Shown here in pieces: positions 5,973 to 54,566 of a stretch of 64,000 nucleotides of DNA. A program made the translations under genes and the position numbers. Origin of the DNA: an uncultured Eubacteriales bacterium (GTDB lineage: Bacteria > Bacillota > Clostridia > Christensenellales > Aristaeellaceae); NCBI GenBank assembly GCA_902799045.1, contig CADBZH010000017.1, positions 1 through 64,000 of the forward strand, written 5' to 3'. Under the pieces are notes generated by a model. That model saw only the letters and a list, made by a program, of their open reading frames with translations. It searched no databases and was not told the DNA's origin. Numbering within the stretch: position 1 is the stretch's first letter; every line of letters begins with the position of its first letter.

Positions 5973-7436
5973 ATGAAGGAACGTCTGGAAGCCATTGAAA
6001 AGGTCATCGCCCAGGGGCCCTACAGCGACACCTGGGAATCCCTGTCGGCCTATCGCGTGCCGGAGTGGTATCGCGACGCGAAGTTCGGCATCTTCATCCA
6101 CTGGGGCGTGTACAGCGTGCCCGCCTATGACAACGAGTGGTATCCCCGGAACATGTACATGCCCGGCTCCAAGGCCTACGAGCATCACATCGCCACCTAC
6201 GGCCCCCATAAGGCATTCGGCTACAAGGACTTCATTCCCCTGTTCAGGGCGGAGAAGTTCGATCCGGACGCCTGGGCGGCGCTGTTTGAGCGGGCGGGGG
6301 CGAAGTACGTCGTGCCGGTGGCGGAGCACCACGACGGCTTCCAGATGTACAAGAGCGACATCTCCCATTTCAACGCCTTCGAGATGGGCCCGCACAGGGA
6401 CGTGCTGGGCGAGCTGAAGGCCAGCTGCGAGGCCCGGGGGCTGACCGTCGGCGCGTCGTCCCACCGCATCGAGCACTGGTTCTTCATGGGCCACGGGCGG
6501 GATTTTGACAGCGACATCCACGAGCCGCTGGTGCGCGGCGACCTCTACTGGCCCGCCATGCCGGAGGGGGACTTCGACAACCTGTTCAGCGTGCCCGCGC
6601 CCACCGACGAGTTCATGGAGGACTGGCTGGTGCGCACCTGCGAGCTGGTGGACAACTATCGCCCGAGGATCCTCTACTTCGACTGGTGGATCGAGCACAG
6701 CGCGGCCAAGCCCTGGATCCGCAAGCTGGCGGCCTACTACTACAACCGCGCCGCCGAGTGGGGCGTGGGGGTCGTGATCCACTACAAGCACGACGCCTTC
6801 CTGTTCGGCTGTGCCGTGCCGGACGTGGAGCGCGGCCAGTTCGCCGACGTGAAGCCCTATGTGTGGCAGACGGACACCGCCGTGGCGCTGAACTCCTGGT
6901 GCCACACCGAGGGGAACGAGTATCGCAAGGCCTCTGACCTGGTGCGCGACCTGGTGGACATCGTCAGCAAGAACGGCTGCCTGCTGCTGAACATCGGCCC
7001 CCGGGCGGACGGCACCATCCCGGAGGAGGACGCGGCGATCCTCAATGAGATTGGCGACTGGATGCGCGTCAACGGCGAGGCCCTCTACGGGGCGCGGCCC
7101 TGGCGGCGCTATGGCGAAGGCCCCACGCAGATCGCCGAGGCCCGCTTCACCGACGGCATCAAGAAGGCGTTCACCAGCCAGGACTTCCGCTTCACCGCCG
7201 CGAACGGCGCGATGTACGCCATCGCCCTGGCGCGTAGCGACGACGGGCGCTACTGCATCCACGCGCTGGGCGACCAGGACCCCGGCAAGCCCACCAACTT
7301 CCACGGCATCATCACGGGCGTCACGGCCCTGGAAACCGGCGAAGCCGTGCCCTTCGAGCGGGACGCCGAGGGCCTGCGCCTGACCTACCGGACCGATACG
7401 GACATGCCTGTGGCGTTCCGGATCGACATGGATTGA
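5973..7436 (+). CDS. alpha-L-fucosidase, GH29
   Basis: The protein has 487 residues with no signal peptide. It matches the GH29 fold: an N-terminal barrel beginning with WYRDAKFGIFIHWGVYSVPA, the segment FDPDAWAALFERAGAKYVV, and VAEHHDGFQMY, which are hallmark fucose-binding strands. The probable nucleophile is Asp237 in LYFDWWIEH. KNGCLLLNIGPRADGTIP and a C-terminal beta domain (about 370-487) complete the family pattern. It removes terminal L-fucose, consistent with trimming fucosylated xyloglucan or host-type glycans in the cytoplasm. The ribosome site AAGGAGGT is strong, and the macrodomain gene follows after 3 bases. Confidence 0.9.
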   Translation: MKERLEAIEKVIAQGPYSDTWESLSAYRVPEWYRDAKFGIFIHWGVYSVPAYDNEWYPRNMYMPGSKAYEHHIATYGPHKAFGYKDFIPLFRAEKFDPDAWAALFERAGAKYVVPVAEHHDGFQMYKSDISHFNAFEMGPHRDVLGELKASCEARGLTVGASSHRIEHWFFMGHGRDFDSDIHEPLVRGDLYWPAMPEGDFDNLFSVPAPTDEFMEDWLVRTCELVDNYRPRILYFDWWIEHSAAKPWIRKLAAYYYNRAAEWGVGVVIHYKHDAFLFGCAVPDVERGQFADVKPYVWQTDTAVALNSWCHTEGNEYRKASDLVRDLVDIVSKNGCLLLNIGPRADGTIPEEDAAILNEIGDWMRVNGEALYGARPWRRYGEGPTQIAEARFTDGIKKAFTSQDFRFTAANGAMYAIALARSDDGRYCIHALGDQDPGKPTNFHGIITGVTALETGEAVPFERDAEGLRLTYRTDTDMPVAFRIDMD

Positions 7437-7439
7437 CCG

Positions 7440-8237
7440 ATGGAACAGCAAAGGCGATTGGCGGAGCTGCTGGAGCGCTTCAAGGCGGACTCCGGGCGCT
7501 GGCGGGATTGGGACGTGCCGGGGGACGAGGGCTCCCGGCGCGCCGCCCTGCGCAGCTTGATGAACATCCGCCCGCCCCGGCCGATGGACGCGGGCACGCT
7601 GCGCCTCCAGGATGAATACCTGTCCGCACGGGCGCGGGAGAAGGGCGTCGTGGCCCTGGCGGACATTCCCGTCCTCCGGGAACCCATCTCCCTCTGGCAG
7701 GGGGATATCACGCGCCTTCAGGTGGACGCCATCGTCAACGCGGCCAACAGCCGGATGCTGGGCTGTTTCGTACCGATGCACACCTGCATCGACAACTGCA
7801 TCCACACCTTCGCGGGGGTGCAGCTGCGGCTGGAGTGCGCCCGGCGGATGGCGGCCCTGCGGGAGGCGCGCGGCGAGGACTATGAGCAGCCCACCGCCCT
7901 GCCGATGCTGACGGACGCCTACAACCTGCCGGCGAGAAAGGTCGTGCACGTGGTCGGGCCCATCGTGGAGGACGCGCTGACGCCGGCGCTGGAGCGCGAC
8001 CTGAAGGACTGCTATCGAAACACCCTCGACCTGTGCGCGGCGAACGGCCTGCGGAGCGTGGCGTTCTGCTGCATATCCACCGGCGTGTTCCGCTTTCCGA
8101 ACCGGCGGGCGGCGGAGATCGCGGTCGGGACCGTGGAGGCCTGGCTGGCGGCGCGCCCCGGGGCGATGGACAGGGTGGTGTTCAACGTGTTCAGGGACGA
8201 GGATTTGCGCATTTACGAAGAGCTGTTGGGAGAGTGA
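7440..8237 (+). CDS. zinc-dependent macrodomain ADP-ribosylhydrolase
   Basis: The protein has 265 residues. A helical N-terminal extension (about 1-85) is followed by a macrodomain with VNAANS (99-104). The insertion GCFVPMHTCIDNCIHTFAG contains the Cys/His set typical of zinc-containing macrodomains of the SauMacro/SpyMacro class. GGG-like ADP-ribose loops appear as CCISTGVFRFPN near 200. Known members remove ADP-ribose from protein side chains and usually sit with a SirTM sirtuin and a lipoylated GcvH-like carrier. Neither partner is seen here; the gene directly follows the fucosidase with a 3-base gap, so it is co-transcribed with glycosidases. Confidence 0.85.
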   Translation: MEQQRRLAELLERFKADSGRWRDWDVPGDEGSRRAALRSLMNIRPPRPMDAGTLRLQDEYLSARAREKGVVALADIPVLREPISLWQGDITRLQVDAIVNAANSRMLGCFVPMHTCIDNCIHTFAGVQLRLECARRMAALREARGEDYEQPTALPMLTDAYNLPARKVVHVVGPIVEDALTPALERDLKDCYRNTLDLCAANGLRSVAFCCISTGVFRFPNRRAAEIAVGTVEAWLAARPGAMDRVVFNVFRDEDLRIYEELLGE

Positions 8238-8315
8238 CCCGGCATCACGGAAAGCTGAGGGTTGCAAGGATAGACAGCAGAACACCGCCCTCCATGCCGC
8301 AGGACAACGCGACGT

Positions 8316-18031: not shown

Positions 18032-18188
18032 AGGGAATAGGGAAAAGGCAATAGGCAATAGGGATTGTGGCTGCCGCGCGTTCTATTGCCGTCAGGATAA
18101 TGGCCTGCGTGCAGCGGCTTTTCCTATTGCCTATTCCCTATTCCCTATTCCCTATTGCCTATTCCCTATTTCCTATTGCCTATTGCCT
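18032..18188. repeat. heptad-arm palindrome (F2), longest copy
   Basis: The left arm has five units (AGGGAAT, AGGGAAA, AGGCAAT, AGGCAAT, AGGGATT; 18032-18066). The right arm has nine CTATTNC units in strict 7-base phase (18124-18186). The core contains GTGGCTGCCGCGCG and GCAGCGG. It is the clearest member of this family in the window. Confidence 0.75.
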
Positions 18189-28320: not shown

Positions 28321-28368
28321 AACAGTTAATCAGGGCGTTTACGCCCAATGAAAAGAGGGGGAGAGATC

Positions 28369-30219
28369 ATGGCACTGGACTATCGCAAGTGCGCGGAGGA
28401 GATCGCCGCCAATATCGGCGGGGGCTCCAATGTCATCAGCGCGGCACACTGCGCGACCCGGCTTCGACTCGTCATTGCCGACAACAGCAAGGTGAACAAG
28501 GAGGTGCTGGAGAACATCGACGGCGTGAAGGGCATGTTCGAATCCAACGGACAGCTCCAGCTGATCATCGGCACCGGCACCGTGAACAAGGTCTACGACG
28601 AATTCCTGTCCGTCACGGGCGCGTCCGCGGCCAGCAAGGCCGACGTGAAGGCCGCCGCGGCCAGCAAGATGCCGTGGTGGAAGAAGGTGTTGAAGACGCC
28701 GGGCGACGTGTTCGTGCCGATCCTTCCCGCCATCGTGGCCTCCGGCCTGATGATGGGCATCGTGGAGGCCATCCCGAAGTTCTGGCCCGCCTTCGGCACC
28801 AGCGACTGGTATGCCTTCCTGGACCTCGTGGCCAACACGGCCTTCGCGCTGCTGCCGGTGCTGGTGGCCATTTCCGCCGCCCGCGTGTTCGGCGGCAACA
28901 TCTTCCTCGGCGGCGTCATCGGCCTGATGATGGTGCATCCGGCGCTGATCAACGCCTGGACCGTGGGCAACTATGCCGCCGGAGAGATACCAACCTGGCA
29001 TCTGTTCTTCTTCAACGTCCAGCAAGTGGGCTACCAGGGGCACGTGATCCCGGTCATACTGGCGGTGCTCCTGATGAGCATCATTGAAAAATGGCTGCAC
29101 AAGAAGGTGCCCGAGATGATCGACCTGTTCGTCACCCCGCTGGTGACGGTGCTGGTCACCTCCTTCGTCACCTTCACCATCATCGGGCCCGTCTTCTCCA
29201 TCCTGGAGAACTGGGTGCTGACCGGCGCGAAGTGGCTGGCCAGCTCGCTGTTCGGCTCCGTGGTCATGGGCGCGCTCTATCCCTGGACGGTCGTCATGGG
29301 CCTGCACCACATGTACAATGTCATCGAGGCGGGCATGATCGCCCAGACCGGCCTGAACACCTGGATGCCCATCGCCTCCGCGGCGAACTTCGCCCAGTTT
29401 GGCGCGTGCCTGGCGGTGGCGCTGAAGGTGAAGAACCAGAAGACCAAGTCCGTGGCGCTGCCCTCGTCGCTGTCCGCTTCGCTGGGCATCACCGAGCCGG
29501 CCATCTTCGGCATCAACTTCCGCTTCATGAAGCCCTTCATCTGCGGCATGATCGGCGGCGCGGTGGGCTCGCTGTTCGGAAGCCTGTTCAAGCTGGGCGC
29601 GCCCGTCTACGGCGTCACCGGCATTCCCGCCATCCCCGCGGTGAACAACGTTCCGCTGTATCTGGTCCAGCTGCTGATCTCCGCGGGCGTGGCCTTCGCG
29701 CTGACCACGATCATCTGGAAGGAAGACGCGCCGAAGCCGGTCACGGCGGCGGGCCCGGCGGTGCAGCCGGCGAAGATCGAGGCCCCGACGGTTTCGGTCA
29801 TCCGCTGCGCCAACGGCACGGTGCTGCAGCCCGTGAAGGGCAATGTCATCCCCTACGACCAGATCCCGGACGACACCTTCGCCTCCGGCGTGCTGGGCGT
29901 GGGCGTGGGCGTGCAGCCGACGGACGAGGTGGTCGTCGCGCCCTTTGACGGCGAGATCAGCTCCGTCGCGGACAGCAAGCACGCCGTGGGCCTCTCCGCC
30001 AACGACATGGAGCTGCTGATCCACGTGGGCGTGGACACCGTGGCCATGAACGGCGACGGCTTTGAGTGCCTCGTCAGCGAGGGCGACCAGGTGAAGGCCG
30101 GCCAGCCGCTGATCCGCTTCAGCCGCGAGAAGATCAGGGCCGCCGGCTACAGCGACACCGTGGCCGTGCTGCTGACCAACTCCGACGACCTCGACGGCGT
30201 GGAGTACGGGGCAAAGTGA
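28369..30219 (+). CDS. PTS sugar transporter IIBCA, sucrose/trehalose type
   Basis: The protein has 616 residues. The IIB domain (about 1-85) has the phosphorylated Cys28 in AAHCATRLRL. The IIC membrane domain (about 105-455) has ITEPAIFGINF and resembles the sucrose/trehalose branch. An Ala/Pro linker follows, then a IIA-Glc-type domain (about 490-616) with His552 in LLIHVGVDTV. It imports and phosphorylates a glucoside; the exact sugar cannot be read from sequence. No cognate phospho-glycosidase is adjacent. The ATG at 28369 follows GAGGGGGAGA. Confidence 0.88.
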   Translation: MALDYRKCAEEIAANIGGGSNVISAAHCATRLRLVIADNSKVNKEVLENIDGVKGMFESNGQLQLIIGTGTVNKVYDEFLSVTGASAASKADVKAAAASKMPWWKKVLKTPGDVFVPILPAIVASGLMMGIVEAIPKFWPAFGTSDWYAFLDLVANTAFALLPVLVAISAARVFGGNIFLGGVIGLMMVHPALINAWTVGNYAAGEIPTWHLFFFNVQQVGYQGHVIPVILAVLLMSIIEKWLHKKVPEMIDLFVTPLVTVLVTSFVTFTIIGPVFSILENWVLTGAKWLASSLFGSVVMGALYPWTVVMGLHHMYNVIEAGMIAQTGLNTWMPIASAANFAQFGACLAVALKVKNQKTKSVALPSSLSASLGITEPAIFGINFRFMKPFICGMIGGAVGSLFGSLFKLGAPVYGVTGIPAIPAVNNVPLYLVQLLISAGVAFALTTIIWKEDAPKPVTAAGPAVQPAKIEAPTVSVIRCANGTVLQPVKGNVIPYDQIPDDTFASGVLGVGVGVQPTDEVVVAPFDGEISSVADSKHAVGLSANDMELLIHVGVDTVAMNGDGFECLVSEGDQVKAGQPLIRFSREKIRAAGYSDTVAVLLTNSDDLDGVEYGAK

Positions 30220-30355: not shown

Positions 30356-32035
30356 ATGATTTCCATCCAGGGCAAAGGTGTATCCACCGGCGTGGCGATG
30401 GGTCCGCTCTATTTCTACACCCGCGCCAAGAGCACCATCCGCCGCATCAAGGTGACGGACACCGAGGCCGAGTGGGGCCGCTTCAAGGCCGCCCAGGCCA
30501 AGGCCATCGAGCAGCTGGGCGAGCTGTATGAAAAGGCGCTGGCCGAGGCCGGCGAGGAGGCCGCCATCCTGTTCGAGACCCACCAGATGATGGCCGAGGA
30601 CGACGACTATGTGGAGTCCATCGAAAACCTCATCAAGGAGGACAAGCTGAACGCCGAGGCCGCCGTGACCGACACCGCCGCGCAGTTTGCCGACATGTTC
30701 GCCCAGATGGACGACGCCTACATGCAGGCCCGCGCCGCGGACGTGAAGGACGTGTCCGGCCGCATCATCGGCATCCTGACCGGCGTGGTGCAGGGCGGCA
30801 TCGATTCCGACGTGCCCGTGGTGCTGGCGGCGGACGACCTGGCCCCCAGCGAGACCGTGCAGCTGGACAAGGCCAAGATCCTGGGCTTCATCACCGAGGG
30901 CGGCAGCGGCTCCAGCCACACCGCCATACTGGCCCGCACGATGGGCATTCCCGCCATCATCGGCGTGGGCAAGCAGCTGAAGGAGGAGTATGAGGGCCGC
31001 GAGGTGATCGTGGACGGCTCCACCGGCGGCATCGTCATCGACGCCGACGAAGCCACCCGCAACGTGATGATGGCCAAGCGCGAGGAGCAGCTGAAGCAGC
31101 GCAAGCTGCTGGAGCAGCTGAAGGGCCAGGAGAACATCACCCGCGACGGCCAGAAGATCCGCGTCTACTGCAACATCGGCAATCCCGAGGACGTGTCCAC
31201 CGTGCTGTCGAACGACGGCGGCGGCGTGGGCCTGTTCCGCTCGGAGTTTCTGTACCTGAACTGCTCGGACTATCCTTCCGAGGACTATCAGTTCGAGGCC
31301 TACAAGCAGGTGCTCTCCGACATGGGCGACAAGGAGGTCATCATCCGCACGCTGGACATCGGCGCGGACAAGCAGATCGACTACTTCCAGATGCCCAAGG
31401 AGGAGAACCCGGCGCTGGGCAACCGCGCGCTGCGCATCTGCCTGAACCGGCCGGAGATCTTCAAGACCCAGCTGCGCGCGCTCTATCGCGCCTCCGCCTA
31501 CGGCAAGCTCGGCATCATGTTCCCGATGGTCACCAGCGTTTGGGAGGTCAAGGAAGCCAAGAAGCTGTGCGAGGTCGTGAAGAAGGAGCTGGACGCCGAG
31601 GGCAAGCCCTACAGCCCGGACGTGGAGATTGGCATCATGATCGAGACCCCCGCCGCGGCGGTGATGAGCGACCGGCTTTCCAAGTTGGTGGACTTCTTCT
31701 CCTGCGGCACCAACGACCTGACTCAGTATACGCTGGCCTGCGACCGGCAGAACAACGACCTGGGCCGCTTCTTCAACCCCCACCATCCGGCCGTGCTGCG
31801 CCTTTTGAAGATGGTGTGCGACAACGCCCACAAGAACGGCGTGTGGGTCGGCATCTGCGGCGAGCTGGGCGCCGACCTGGAGCTGACGGAGACCTTCCTC
31901 TCCATCGGCATCGACGAGCTGTCCGTCTCCCCGCGCAGCGTGCTGCCGCTGCGCCAGAAGATCCGCGAGACCACCGTCTCCGCCGTGAAGGAGAAGGTCC
32001 TGGCGGACCTGCTGGGGGATGGAAACGCGATCTGA
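30356..32035 (+). CDS. ptsI: PTS enzyme I
   Basis: The protein has 559 residues, close to the usual 570-575. It transfers phosphate from phosphoenolpyruvate to HPr. The phospho-histidine is His188 in GSGSSHTAILAR. The C-terminal PEP-binding domain contains GLFRSEFLYL, RTLDIGADKQ and the catalytic-cysteine loop WVGICGELG. The ATG at 30356 follows AAAGGAG; the longer frame runs through the repeat upstream. It lies between IIBCA and the HPr-dehydrogenase fusion. Confidence 0.95.
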   Translation: MISIQGKGVSTGVAMGPLYFYTRAKSTIRRIKVTDTEAEWGRFKAAQAKAIEQLGELYEKALAEAGEEAAILFETHQMMAEDDDYVESIENLIKEDKLNAEAAVTDTAAQFADMFAQMDDAYMQARAADVKDVSGRIIGILTGVVQGGIDSDVPVVLAADDLAPSETVQLDKAKILGFITEGGSGSSHTAILARTMGIPAIIGVGKQLKEEYEGREVIVDGSTGGIVIDADEATRNVMMAKREEQLKQRKLLEQLKGQENITRDGQKIRVYCNIGNPEDVSTVLSNDGGGVGLFRSEFLYLNCSDYPSEDYQFEAYKQVLSDMGDKEVIIRTLDIGADKQIDYFQMPKEENPALGNRALRICLNRPEIFKTQLRALYRASAYGKLGIMFPMVTSVWEVKEAKKLCEVVKKELDAEGKPYSPDVEIGIMIETPAAAVMSDRLSKLVDFFSCGTNDLTQYTLACDRQNNDLGRFFNPHHPAVLRLLKMVCDNAHKNGVWVGICGELGADLELTETFLSIGIDELSVSPRSVLPLRQKIRETTVSAVKEKVLADLLGDGNAI

Positions 32036-32046
32036 TGTTTTGATTG

Positions 32047-32149
32047 AGGGATCAGGGAGTAGGGAGTAGGGAGTAGGAATAGCTGCTGCCGCGCATACTA
32101 ACGGCATCTTCTGCACGGAAAACGCGGCAGCCCCTACTCCCTGCTCCCG
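32047..32149. repeat. heptad-arm palindrome (F5)
   Basis: AGGGATC is followed by three AGGGAGT units. The core has GCTGCTGCCGCGC and GCGGCAGCC, and the right arm is CTACTCC CTGCTCC. It lies between ptsI and the HPr fusion. Confidence 0.65.
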
Positions 32150-32185
32150 CTTCAAAACCACCATTTGCAAGGAGCCAAACCAACC

Positions 32186-33487
32186 ATGACCACCATCACC
32201 TATGAAGTCACCGGCCCGCTGGGGCTGCACGCCCGACCGGCGGCGTTCCTGGCGCAGACCTGCGTGAACCTTACCTCGCAGATCACCGTGAAGTATGACG
32301 GAAGGACCGCCAGCGGCTCGAATGTGCTGGAGCTGCTGGCGCTGCACGCCGGAAGGGGCGCGATGCTGGAGATCAGCGCCGAGGGCGGCGACGAGCGGGC
32401 GGCGCTGGACGAGATCAACCGGGTGCTGCGGGAGAAGCTGTGGGACCGGAACAAGACCCGTCTGCTGCGCATCGCCTTCTTCGGCACGAAGGATTATGAC
32501 CGGCTGTTCTTCAGCGAGCTGGCAAAGGACCGGGGCGCGGGCACCTACAACTGCGACATCCGCTATTTCAACTGCCGCCTGACGCCGGAGACGGCGAACC
32601 TGGCCCGGGGCTACGACGCGGTGTGCGTGTTCGTGAACGACGAGCTGCCCCGGGCGGCGGTGGAGACGCTGCGCAACGGCGGCGTGCGGCTGATCCTGCT
32701 GCGCTGCGCCGGCTTCAACAACGTGGATCTGCAGGCCGCGAAGGAATGCGGCATCAAGGTGGCGCGGGTGCCGGCCTATTCGCCCTACGCCGTGGCCGAG
32801 CACGCGATGAGCCTCATCATGACGGCCAACCGCCGGCTGCACAAGGCCGTGAACAAGGTGCGCGACAACAACTTCTCCCTCTCCGGCCTGCTGGGGCTGG
32901 ATCTGCACAACAAGGCGGCGGGCATCGTCGGCACCGGCAAGATCGGCGTCTGCATGGCCCGCATCTGCAAGGGCTTCGGCATGACCGTGCTGGCCTGGGA
33001 CGCCTACCCGAACCGGGCGCTGGAGGAGGAGGGGCTTCTGAGCTACGTGCCCCTGGAGGAGCTGCTGGAGCGGGCGGACCTGATCTCGCTCCACGCGCCG
33101 CTGATCGAAGGCCCGAACGGCACCTGGCACCTGATCGACGAGCGGGCCATCGCCCGCATGAAGGACACCGCCATGCTGGTGAACACCGCCCGAGGCGGCC
33201 TGATCGACACCGAGGCGCTGATCGAGGCGCTGAAGAACGGCAAGTTCCACGCCGTGGCGCTGGACGTGTACGAGGGCGAGGACGCCAACGTGTACACCGA
33301 CCGGTCCGACGAGTTCCTGAACAACGATATCACGGCGCGGCTGCAGATGTTCCCCAACGTGGTGCTCACCAGCCACCAGGCCTTCTTCACCCGCGAGGCC
33401 CTGCAGGCCATCGCCGCCGAGACGCTGGAAAACGCCCGTCGCTTCAACGAGGGGGCGGACCTGGGCGCGGCGGAGTGCAAGGCGTGA
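32186..33487 (+). CDS. HPr domain fused to D-lactate dehydrogenase
   Basis: The protein has 433 residues in one open frame. Residues 1-88 are an HPr phosphocarrier: GPLGLHARPAA puts the phospho-histidine at His15, its canonical number. Position 46 (regulatory Ser in Gram-positive HPr) is Asn, with Ser at 45. Residues about 97-430 are a D-2-hydroxyacid dehydrogenase of the LdhA type: Rossmann loop GIVGTGKIG (246-254), Arg336 in TARGGLID, Glu363 in DVYEGED and His397 in LTSHQAFFTREAL. The ATG follows AAGGAG. As third gene after IIBCA and enzyme I it supplies the operon's only HPr. I infer a link between sugar import and D-lactate formation. Confidence 0.9.
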   Translation: MTTITYEVTGPLGLHARPAAFLAQTCVNLTSQITVKYDGRTASGSNVLELLALHAGRGAMLEISAEGGDERAALDEINRVLREKLWDRNKTRLLRIAFFGTKDYDRLFFSELAKDRGAGTYNCDIRYFNCRLTPETANLARGYDAVCVFVNDELPRAAVETLRNGGVRLILLRCAGFNNVDLQAAKECGIKVARVPAYSPYAVAEHAMSLIMTANRRLHKAVNKVRDNNFSLSGLLGLDLHNKAAGIVGTGKIGVCMARICKGFGMTVLAWDAYPNRALEEEGLLSYVPLEELLERADLISLHAPLIEGPNGTWHLIDERAIARMKDTAMLVNTARGGLIDTEALIEALKNGKFHAVALDVYEGEDANVYTDRSDEFLNNDITARLQMFPNVVLTSHQAFFTREALQAIAAETLENARRFNEGADLGAAECKA

Positions 33488-33734
33488 GGAGGGAGGAGTT
33501 GTGGTTCAAATCCCTTCGGGATTTGTCGAATTGAATGAGTCCCGGATTGCCACGGCCCTGCGGGCCTCGCAATGACGCGGTCATGTGCCGACGCACCATT
33601 CCTGCAGGCGTGAAAGATGAGAGCAAAGCCACGTCATTGCGAGGAGGGCCCAGGCCCGACGTGGCAATCTGGTTTCCCCTGAATTCTGAAATCCGAAGGA
33701 TTTCTTCCACAACTCCTCCTCCTCGCTCCGGCCT
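33484..33734. repeat. heptad arms flanking a family-C repeat
   Basis: The outer arms GTGAGGA GGGAGGA GTTGTGG (33484-33504) and CCACAAC TCCTCCT CCTCGCT (33707-33727) are mutually complementary. They enclose family-C sequence: AAATCCCTTCGGGATTT, ATTGCCACGG, GCCTCGCAATGAC and its mirror GTCATTGCGAGGAGGGCC (33631-33660). No gene is seen in this gap. Confidence 0.55.
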
Positions 33735-34125: not shown

Positions 34126-34200
34126 GTACAGATCTTTCGCTTCGCTCAGGATAACAGGGATCGCGATGCGTTGTCATCCTGAGCGAAGCGATGTTGCAAT
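34126..34200. repeat. CATCCTGAGCGAAGCGA hairpin repeat
   Basis: An imperfect long hairpin: GATCTTTCGCTTCGCTCAGGAT (in pieces) faces CATCCTGAGCGAAGCGATG (34176-34194). It is the same family as 52511-52589 and is probably a terminator of the Dabb gene. Confidence 0.6.
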
Positions 34201-34334: not shown

Positions 34335-34362
34335 GCCACCACAGTCGAATACCGCAATTAAA

Positions 34363-34523
34363 GGATAGAGGCGCAGCTGTCATCAGTAAGCCCCGGCGCG
34401 CAAGGCTTCGCAGGCCGTTGCCGGGAACGAAAGGGGCCGCTGCCGAAGGGAAGGGAGCGCGAGCCCGGCCCTGGGCAAACGGACAACATCCGTTTGACTG
34501 CCGCACCAGCGGAGCGCTATGGA
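34363..34523 (+). ncRNA. lysine riboswitch (L box)
   Basis: The leader before dapA contains conserved lysine-aptamer pieces in order: GATAGAGGCGC (34364-34374), AGTAAG (34385-34390), GGGGCCGCTGCCGAAGG (34433-34449), a CAAACGGAcaacaTCCGTTTG hairpin arm and a closing GCGCTATG. The P1 stem pairs ATAGaGGCGC with GCGCTAT. Lysine binding should lower expression of the downstream operon. Confidence 0.85.
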
Positions 34524-34570
34524 TTAATTGTGATTTCCCAGGTCGGGCTGCGTCCGGCGCGGGAACCACA

Positions 34571-35516: not shown

Positions 35517-35521
35517 CATTG

Positions 35522-35613
35522 AGGGAGTAGGGAGCAGGGAACAGGGAGCAGGAAATGCCGGGAACGCGGCAGCCACTATTCCTGCTCCCTACTGCCTGCT
35601 GCCTGCTCCCTGG
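35522..35613. repeat. heptad-arm palindrome (F6)
   Basis: The left arm is AGGGAGT AGGGAGC AGGGAAC AGGGAGC. The right arm is CTATTCC TGCTCCC TACTGCC TGCTGCC TGCTCCC. The core contains GCGGCAGCCAC. It fills the dapA-dapB gap. Confidence 0.65.
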
Positions 35614-52510: not shown

Positions 52511-52589
52511 GCACAGATCCTTCGCTCACGCTCAGGATGGCAGACGACGCGATGCTGTCATCCTGAGCGAAGCGAAGGATCTGTGCGCA
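52511..52589. repeat. GCACAGATCCTTCGC hairpin repeat, best copy
   Basis: GCACAGATCCTTCGCT...CGCTCAGGATG faces CATCCTGAGCG..GCGAAGGATCTGTGC with near-perfect pairing over about 30 bp. It is the clearest copy of this family in the window and lies between convergent genes, so it probably terminates both. Confidence 0.7.
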
Positions 52590-54122: not shown

Positions 54123-54566
54123 GGCGTGAGGAGTTAGGTGGCGGTAAATCAAGGAAAAGCAACGCAGAAATGCAGCCAAATCCGCCGAAAATGCGCTTCG
54201 GGGATTTTAGAAACACACTCTAGGAGTTCAGGTGGAAATCCTTCGGATTTCTTTGATTGATGGGGAACCGGATTGCCACGGCCTTCGGCCTCGCAATGAC
54301 GTGGCAATGGAAGAGATGCTTCATTCCTGTCGAAAGGGTATTCATGTTTCCCGCAACGTCATTGCGAGGAGGCCATGGGCCGACGCGGCAATCCGGGTCC
54401 CCGGCATTCTAGAGTGTGTTTCTAAAATCCTGAACATGCATTTTCGGCGTCTAAGGCTGCATTTCTGTGTTGCTTTTCCTCGACTTGCAACCAGTAAGCC
54501 TTCGGAAAATGCCTCACTCCTCACTCATAAAACTCCACACGCCACACGCCACACTCCTGACTCACG
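54121..54566. repeat. nested composite of three repeat families
   Basis: Outer heptad arms lie at 54121-54142 and 54511-54566 (GCCTCAC TCCTCAC...ACGCCAC ACGCCAC). Inside them are two partial element-B copies with tips facing inward (54151-54223 and 54409-54510). Inside those is a family-C palindrome (54224-54408) with CAATGACG and CGTCATTGCGAGGAGGCC arms. There is no gene in these 450 bases. Confidence 0.65.

What the first reader, a model, noticed from the sequence alone, without database searches (positions are those of the whole stretch)
32186..33487. HPr phosphocarrier fused to a D-lactate dehydrogenase
One frame joins a complete HPr (His15 at its canonical position) to a complete LdhA-type dehydrogenase with Rossmann loop, Arg336, Glu363 and His397. 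It is the third gene of a PTS operon (IIBCA, enzyme I, fusion), so the operon's HPr is this protein. Phosphorylation of the HPr part, which reflects the PEP/pyruvate ratio and sugar flux, could directly modulate the enzyme that disposes of pyruvate. I know of HPr fusions to PTS domains, but not to a fermentative dehydrogenase.
Basis: partly seen in the sequence, partly recalled or inferred. Interest (0 to 1): 0.88.

Follow-up and report, generated by a model that had tools for sequence, protein, structure and literature searches.

The report
Sugar-uptake HPr fused to lactate enzyme
A phosphate-carrying protein of the bacterial sugar-uptake system is permanently joined to an enzyme of the kind that makes D-lactate, in two bacterial classes, which suggests that sugar uptake may switch fermentation directly inside one molecule.

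Summary
Window 32186-33487 (+) is one 433-codon frame holding a complete HPr domain (residues 4-82, His15) and a complete LdhA-type D-2-hydroxyacid dehydrogenase (95-425, Arg336/Glu363/His397). It is not an assembly artefact. The architecture occurs in 7 of 28 genomes of the genus (6 intact, 1 frame-broken). It also occurs in 9 of 189 genomes (6 of 30 genera) of an unnamed family in another class of the phylum. Each half groups as one clade, so one fusion followed by transfer between lineages is the simplest history. G13, H15-A20, Q24 and C26 are invariant in 16 of 16 copies; linker length is identical in 15 of 16. The IIBCA-EI-fusion operon is real, but in only 4 of 6 intact genus genomes. 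In the other family no enzyme I or IIBCA homologue lies near the gene. I favour a regulatory HPr: His15 phosphorylation by enzyme I, tracking PEP/pyruvate and sugar flux, sets the attached D-LDH. My capped literature searches listed no HPr-dehydrogenase fusion.

The parts
32186..33487 (+). HPr-LdhA fusion gene, 433 aa plus stop
   Evidence: relatives
32186..32437 (+). HPr domain, residues 1-84; His15 codon 32228-32230; Asn at position 46 (codon 32321-32323)
   Evidence: PF00381 71 bits, TIGR01003 63.1 over cut-off 47.9; PDB HPr relatives; codons checked
32438..32467 (+). short linker, residues 85-94, variable in sequence; HPr-to-LDH distance fixed in 15 of 16 copies
32468..33484 (+). LdhA-type D-2-hydroxyacid dehydrogenase, residues 95-433; Rossmann loop 32930-32947, Arg336 33191-33193, Glu363 33272-33274, His397 33374-33376
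   Evidence: PF00389, PF02826; PDB relatives
32528..32551 (+). fusion-specific insert region, residues 115-122 (G117, G119, T120 invariant in 14 of 14 fusions, in 0 of 50 standalone relatives)
32169..32174 (+). ribosome-binding-like AAGGAG
28348..30219 (+). PTS IIBCA permease (best NCBIfam models sucrose and beta-glucoside type, below their cut-offs)
30356..32035 (+). enzyme I, the only one found in the genome
32036..32163 (+). palindromic repeat element between enzyme I and the fusion; strong hairpin; no terminator-like site listed here

Best explanation
A PTS-gated D-lactate dehydrogenase. Shown: an HPr domain with an intact His15 site is covalently joined, by a short linker of nearly constant length, to an LdhA-type dehydrogenase with intact catalytic residues, as a conserved two-domain family found in two classes. 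Inferred: enzyme I phosphorylates His15, so its phosphorylation state reports PEP/pyruvate and PTS flux. During rapid sugar import the HPr part is mostly unphosphorylated and LDH is active, draining pyruvate and NADH to D-lactate. When sugar runs out, phospho-HPr lowers LDH activity. The direction is a guess, by analogy with dephosphorylated HPr stimulating pyruvate kinase A in Vibrio vulnificus.
For: Fusion in two classes of the phylum. Each half is one clade: LDH 100/100 among 83 rows, HPr 0.939 among 38 rows. G13, H15, A16, R17, P18, A19, A20, Q24 and C26 are invariant in 16 of 16. HPr-to-LDH distance is identical in 15 of 16. R336/E363/H397 are invariant in 14 of 14 complete fusions. Both domains show constraint: pN/pS 0.046-0.612 for HPr and 0.094-0.292 for LDH over 15 pairs. 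The fusion is kept where it is separate from IIBCA-EI (G015, G026), so the HPr part is not just an operon passenger. In 5 of 7 fusion genomes no other LDH-like match exceeds 34% identity, and no PF02866 LDH match was found in any of the 7. Enzyme I was found in 6 of 7. The Ser46 place is Asn in 15 of 16, leaving His15 as the likely input. Precedents for HPr acting on metabolic enzymes: PMC5987630 (abstract), PMC5320558 (passages).
Against: The HPr part diverges faster than the LDH part: 38-48% against 70-75% identity between the two lineages. It is less similar than the type B HPr in 10 of 10 genome pairs, by 1-3 points in 7 of them. Presence of enzyme I in the f141 genomes was not tested. G1586 lacks the stretch with the catalytic His. 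In-frame Met codons lie near the junction in 13 of 16 copies, so a separate LDH product from an internal start is not excluded there, though the window, G010 and G1445 have none. A fixed linker length could also reflect simple folding needs.
Confidence: 0.5

Rival explanations
1. The HPr part is simply the working phosphocarrier of the IIBCA-EI operon, and LDH is tethered to it for joint supply or to remove pyruvate made by enzyme I; there is no regulation of LDH.
For: In 4 of 6 intact genus genomes the order is IIBCA-EI-fusion, with the only enzyme I found and no other HPr in that operon; His15 site intact.
Against: Ten fusion-free genomes of the genus have enzyme I, no HPr found beside it, and a type B HPr elsewhere (seven also a third HPr match). 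The fusion stands apart from IIBCA-EI in G015 and G026, and no enzyme I or IIBCA homologue lies near it in f141 (10 stretches, 138 kb). It is less conserved than type B HPr.
Confidence: 0.25
2. The HPr part is no longer phosphorylated and serves as a structural, oligomerisation or docking module for the dehydrogenase.
For: Fast divergence of HPr; invariant Cys26, absent from the standalone HPrs aligned; fusion-specific LDH insert.
Against: G13 and H15-A20 are invariant in 16 of 16 over large divergence; a dead active site would be expected to drift.
Confidence: 0.15
3. The dehydrogenase acts on another 2-oxoacid rather than pyruvate, so the link is to another pathway.
For: 45 LDH positions invariant in 14 fusions occur in at most 10% of 50 standalone relatives; none of the 25 NCBIfam models shown reaches an LDH cut-off (best 228.6 against 540).
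Against: Best solved relatives are named D-lactate dehydrogenases or D-2-hydroxyacid dehydrogenases; catalytic residues kept.
Confidence: 0.09
4. Assembly artefact or chance read-through.
For: Most of these genomes are draft assemblies; G007 shows a frame break.
Against: 14 complete loci in separate genomes with the same junction length, one residue shorter in one.
Confidence: 0.01

Closest known systems
HPr (PTS phosphocarrier, PF00381 / TIGR01003)
   Same: Full-length domain over curated cut-offs, His15 site intact
   Different: Covalently joined to a dehydrogenase; Asn at the Ser46 place in 15 of 16 copies; invariant Cys26
Multiphosphoryl transfer proteins (HPr joined to IIA and/or EI, such as FPr/FruB and IIA-Man-HPr)
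   Same: HPr as one domain of a larger polypeptide (PMC2405797, passages seen)
   Different: Partners in the passages seen are PTS domains; here a metabolic enzyme and no other PTS domain
Fermentative D-lactate dehydrogenase LdhA
   Same: Best PDB sequence relatives at 320-328 bits (their species are recalled, not shown); same catalytic residues
   Different: N-terminal HPr; insert and 45 subfamily-specific residues
HPr control of metabolic enzymes in trans (V. vulnificus PykA, E. coli glycogen phosphorylase)
   Same: Works-like candidate: HPr acting directly on an enzyme of central metabolism (PMC5987630 abstract, PMC5320558 passages)
   Different: There separate proteins, non-covalent; here one chain

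Membership tests
HPr family | Match over curated cut-off, whole domain | tested here: met
   PF00381 71 bits (23), TIGR01003 63.1 (47.9)
HPr family | His15-x-Arg17-Pro18 active site | tested here: met
   H15, R17, P18 in 16 of 16 fusions
HPr family | Ser46 site for HPr kinase (Gram-positive HPr; not required of all HPr) | tested here: not met
   Asn46 in the window and 15 of 16; Ser only in G1445; an HPr kinase match is present in the genome
HPr family | Accepts phosphate from enzyme I | not testable with these tools
   needs protein; an enzyme I gene is adjacent
D-2-hydroxyacid dehydrogenase / LdhA | PF00389 and PF02826 over cut-off | tested here: met
D-2-hydroxyacid dehydrogenase / LdhA | Catalytic Arg, Glu, His and GxGxxG loop | tested here: met
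   invariant in 14 fusions and 50 relatives
D-2-hydroxyacid dehydrogenase / LdhA | Curated LDH model score | tested here: not met
   vanH_gen 228.6 against 540; PRK12480 187.4 against 579; PRK08605 178.5 against 356
D-2-hydroxyacid dehydrogenase / LdhA | Pyruvate to D-lactate activity | not testable with these tools
   none
Multiphosphoryl transfer protein | HPr joined to another PTS domain | tested here: not met
   no IIA, IIB or EI match in P0001 by Pfam, nor among the 25 of 31 NCBIfam matches shown

The most novel reading that the evidence does not exclude
A covalent PTS-controlled fermentation switch: enzyme I phosphorylates the fused HPr, and this sets D-LDH activity in cis, so sugar-uptake flux decides pyruvate disposal within one molecule. 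It would be a kind of PTS output not described in the papers my searches listed, and it has spread between two classes of one phylum.
Probability: 0.45. Interest if true: 0.86.

Novelty: new variant of a known kind. Interest (0 to 1): 0.76.

Why it matters
HPr is known to act on metabolic enzymes in trans, but each link has to be found one at a time. A conserved fusion says that the two functions belong together. If phosphorylation of the HPr part alters LDH, the PEP/pyruvate ratio would control lactate formation inside one polypeptide. That gives a clean, two-protein test of PTS control of fermentation, relevant to rumen lactate and to engineered flux control.

Tried and rejected
Assembly artefact: rejected by relatives. 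Internal separate start for the LDH: the window has no ATG/GTG/TTG at codons 84-100, nor do G010 and G1445 have a Met there. But 13 of 16 copies have a Met at 84, 85, 93 or 94, not at one shared place, so this is unlikely as the general rule but not excluded in those copies; ribosome-binding sites there were not checked. Pre-fusion state (an HPr gene near a standalone relative of the LDH): none in 80 non-fusion loci (70 distinct proteins) of the 99 loci examined; flanks were mostly about 1.5 kb. Enzyme I positions that separate fusion from non-fusion genomes: only 2 among 20 genomes compared, uninformative. Plasmid records: the best 20 of 485 listed are LDH-type matches; 5 of the 485 have one place covering at least 80% of the query, of which the listed ones begin at residue 52 or later, so no fusion was seen. 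Naming family f141 by a transposase in plasmids gave no useful answer. A note of mine that all genus genomes carry type B HPr was wrong: it is seen in 20 of 28, counting the G000 fragments.

Limits of the genome counts: thresholds were strict (E 1e-100 family, 1e-12 order and class, 1e-25 phylum, 1e-30 f141), so very diverged fusions could be missed; the order, class and phylum sets are samples and overlap.

Full report
What is there. The frame 32186-33487 (+) encodes 433 aa. HPr covers residues 4-82 and the dehydrogenase about 95-425, each over its Pfam cut-off. The HPr part matches HPr chains in the PDB (best 51.3 bits, 33 distinct sequences). The dehydrogenase part matches D-lactate dehydrogenases best (327.7 bits). 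The linker is about ten residues. Upstream on the same strand are IIBCA and enzyme I; downstream is a Dabb-domain gene, a lysine riboswitch, then dapA and dapB; rnfC and rnfD lie upstream on the other strand.

Real, not artefact. Of the 28 genomes held for the genus, 6 have the full-length frame (the window's, and 91, 88, 87, 85 and 85% identity) and a seventh, G007, has it with a frame break inside the HPr part. G007 is also the only fusion genome in which no enzyme I was found, but it is only 67% complete. Three carriers are named in genome contigs: uncultured Clostridiales RUG14601, RUG11878 and RUG13544.

Spread. With the whole protein, 11 of 308 family genomes matched at E 1e-100: the 7 fusions and 4 LDH-only matches. 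With residues 1-177, full-length matches were 2 of 396 genomes in the order (both of the own genus), 1 of 391 in the class (the window's genome) and 3 of 398 in the phylum: the window's genome and two of another class. The family of those two, f141, has it in 9 of 189 genomes and 6 of 30 genera. Of its 10 loci, 8 are complete; G1461a is cut by a contig end, and G1586 lacks 31 residues that include the catalytic His, with no N in the locus.

History. In a tree of 83 dehydrogenase rows, the 16 fusion rows form one group (100/100). Their nearest standalone relatives are two genomes of another family of the class, and the genus's own standalone LDHs are elsewhere in the tree. The 16 fusion HPrs also group (0.939; 38 rows, FastTree), apart from the HPrs sampled from the genus. 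These two sets of 16 are not identical: the LDH set includes G007, and the HPr set includes G1461a. One fusion followed by horizontal transfer is the simplest reading; root and donor are unknown.

Anatomy. Invariant HPr positions in 16 of 16 are M1, G13, H15-A20, Q24, C26, T34, A42, G44, L48, L53, G58, G67, D69, E70 and A73. Position 46 is Asn in 15 and Ser in one, G1445, although an HPr kinase match is present in the window's genome. The LDH has 45 fusion-specific residues, with an insert around 115-122 (G117, G119 and T120 in 0 of 50 standalone relatives). Distance from HPr to LDH is 26 residues in 15 of 16 and 25 in one. pN/pS shows constraint on both domains, weaker for HPr; the linker exceeds 1 in 8 of the 14 pairs with a defined value.

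PTS context in the genus. An enzyme I match was found in 23 of 28 genomes, one each. Seven have a standalone HPr (type A) just before enzyme I. A different standalone HPr (type B) is seen in 20 of 28, counting G000's two fragments. In G010 and G026 it sits beside PTS genes of another kind (EIIC-GAT, IIB and IIA by Pfam in G010). Ten fusion-free genomes have enzyme I, no HPr found beside it and type B elsewhere; seven of these also have a third HPr match at 3-79. In G000, G010, G016 and G021 the order is IIBCA-EI-fusion-Dabb. In G015 and G026 it is fusion-Dabb-dapA-dapB beside rnfC, with IIBCA-EI on another contig. In f141 the neighbours differ between genera; seven were named by Pfam, and no homologue of this enzyme I or IIBCA was found in 138 kb around the 10 loci (other PTS classes were only looked for by eye). 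The operon is therefore one arrangement of a gene that is kept elsewhere too.

Mechanism. The pattern favours a domain kept for what it does to the enzyme it is joined to, rather than for carrying phosphate to permeases. His15 is the likely input, because Ser46 is gone in nearly all copies. The likely signal is the PEP/pyruvate ratio and PTS load, and the output is D-lactate formation. In 5 of 7 carriers no other match above 34% identity to the LDH was found (G007 and G010 have one at 51%), and no PF02866 LDH was found in the 7. All steps after the sequence facts are inference.

Literature. Searches listed no paper on such a fusion. Most lists were capped (20 of 57, 2 of 2, 15 of 50, 12 of 181, 5 of 5, 10 of 15, 9 of 10, 12 of 750 in that order), and I saw titles and abstract starts. 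PMC2405797 (passages seen) describes HPr fusions with PTS domains and has no 'dehydrogenase' in its main text. PMC6303947 (passages seen), a survey of the dehydrogenase family, has no 'phosphocarrier'. Only open-licence PMC text was searched; databases of domain architectures were not available.

Noticed in passing
window 32036-32163, 35518-35611, 18033-18173: Palindromic GGGAGTAGGGAGTAGG-type repeat elements (17 matches against 0.28 expected); the copy between enzyme I and the fusion folds strongly (z -4.93).
   Followed up: partly
window 33565-33644 and 54289-54369: CGTCATTGCGAGG as exact inverted pairs at two places; the total count with mismatches (6 against 3.0 expected) is not clearly above chance.
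   Followed up: no
window 34137-34191 and 52556-52575: TGTCATCCTGAGCGAAGCGA element, inverted pair and single copy (4 matches with up to 3 mismatches against 0 expected).
   Followed up: no
window 34358-34527: Lysine riboswitch (RF00168, 71.5 bits) ahead of dapA.
   Followed up: no
L197:3240-3491, L199:3147-3395, L200:3944-4198: HPr-like genes next to a WhiA gene (Pfam in L197 only) keep a Ser at the Ser46 place but lack His15, while the His15 HPrs of types A, B and C lack Ser46: the two phosphorylation sites may be divided between proteins in this genus.
   Followed up: partly
L202:4151-4408: A third HPr type (HARHA in place of HARPA) directly after ResB and cytochrome c assembly genes.
   Followed up: no
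L002 and L003 (own genome): The standalone type B HPr appears twice as the same N-terminal fragment, once at a contig end and once before a run of N.
   Followed up: no
L040 (G007) 6991-8288: Frame break inside the HPr part of a fusion whose LDH part stays open, in the one fusion genome where no enzyme I was found (67% complete).
   Followed up: partly
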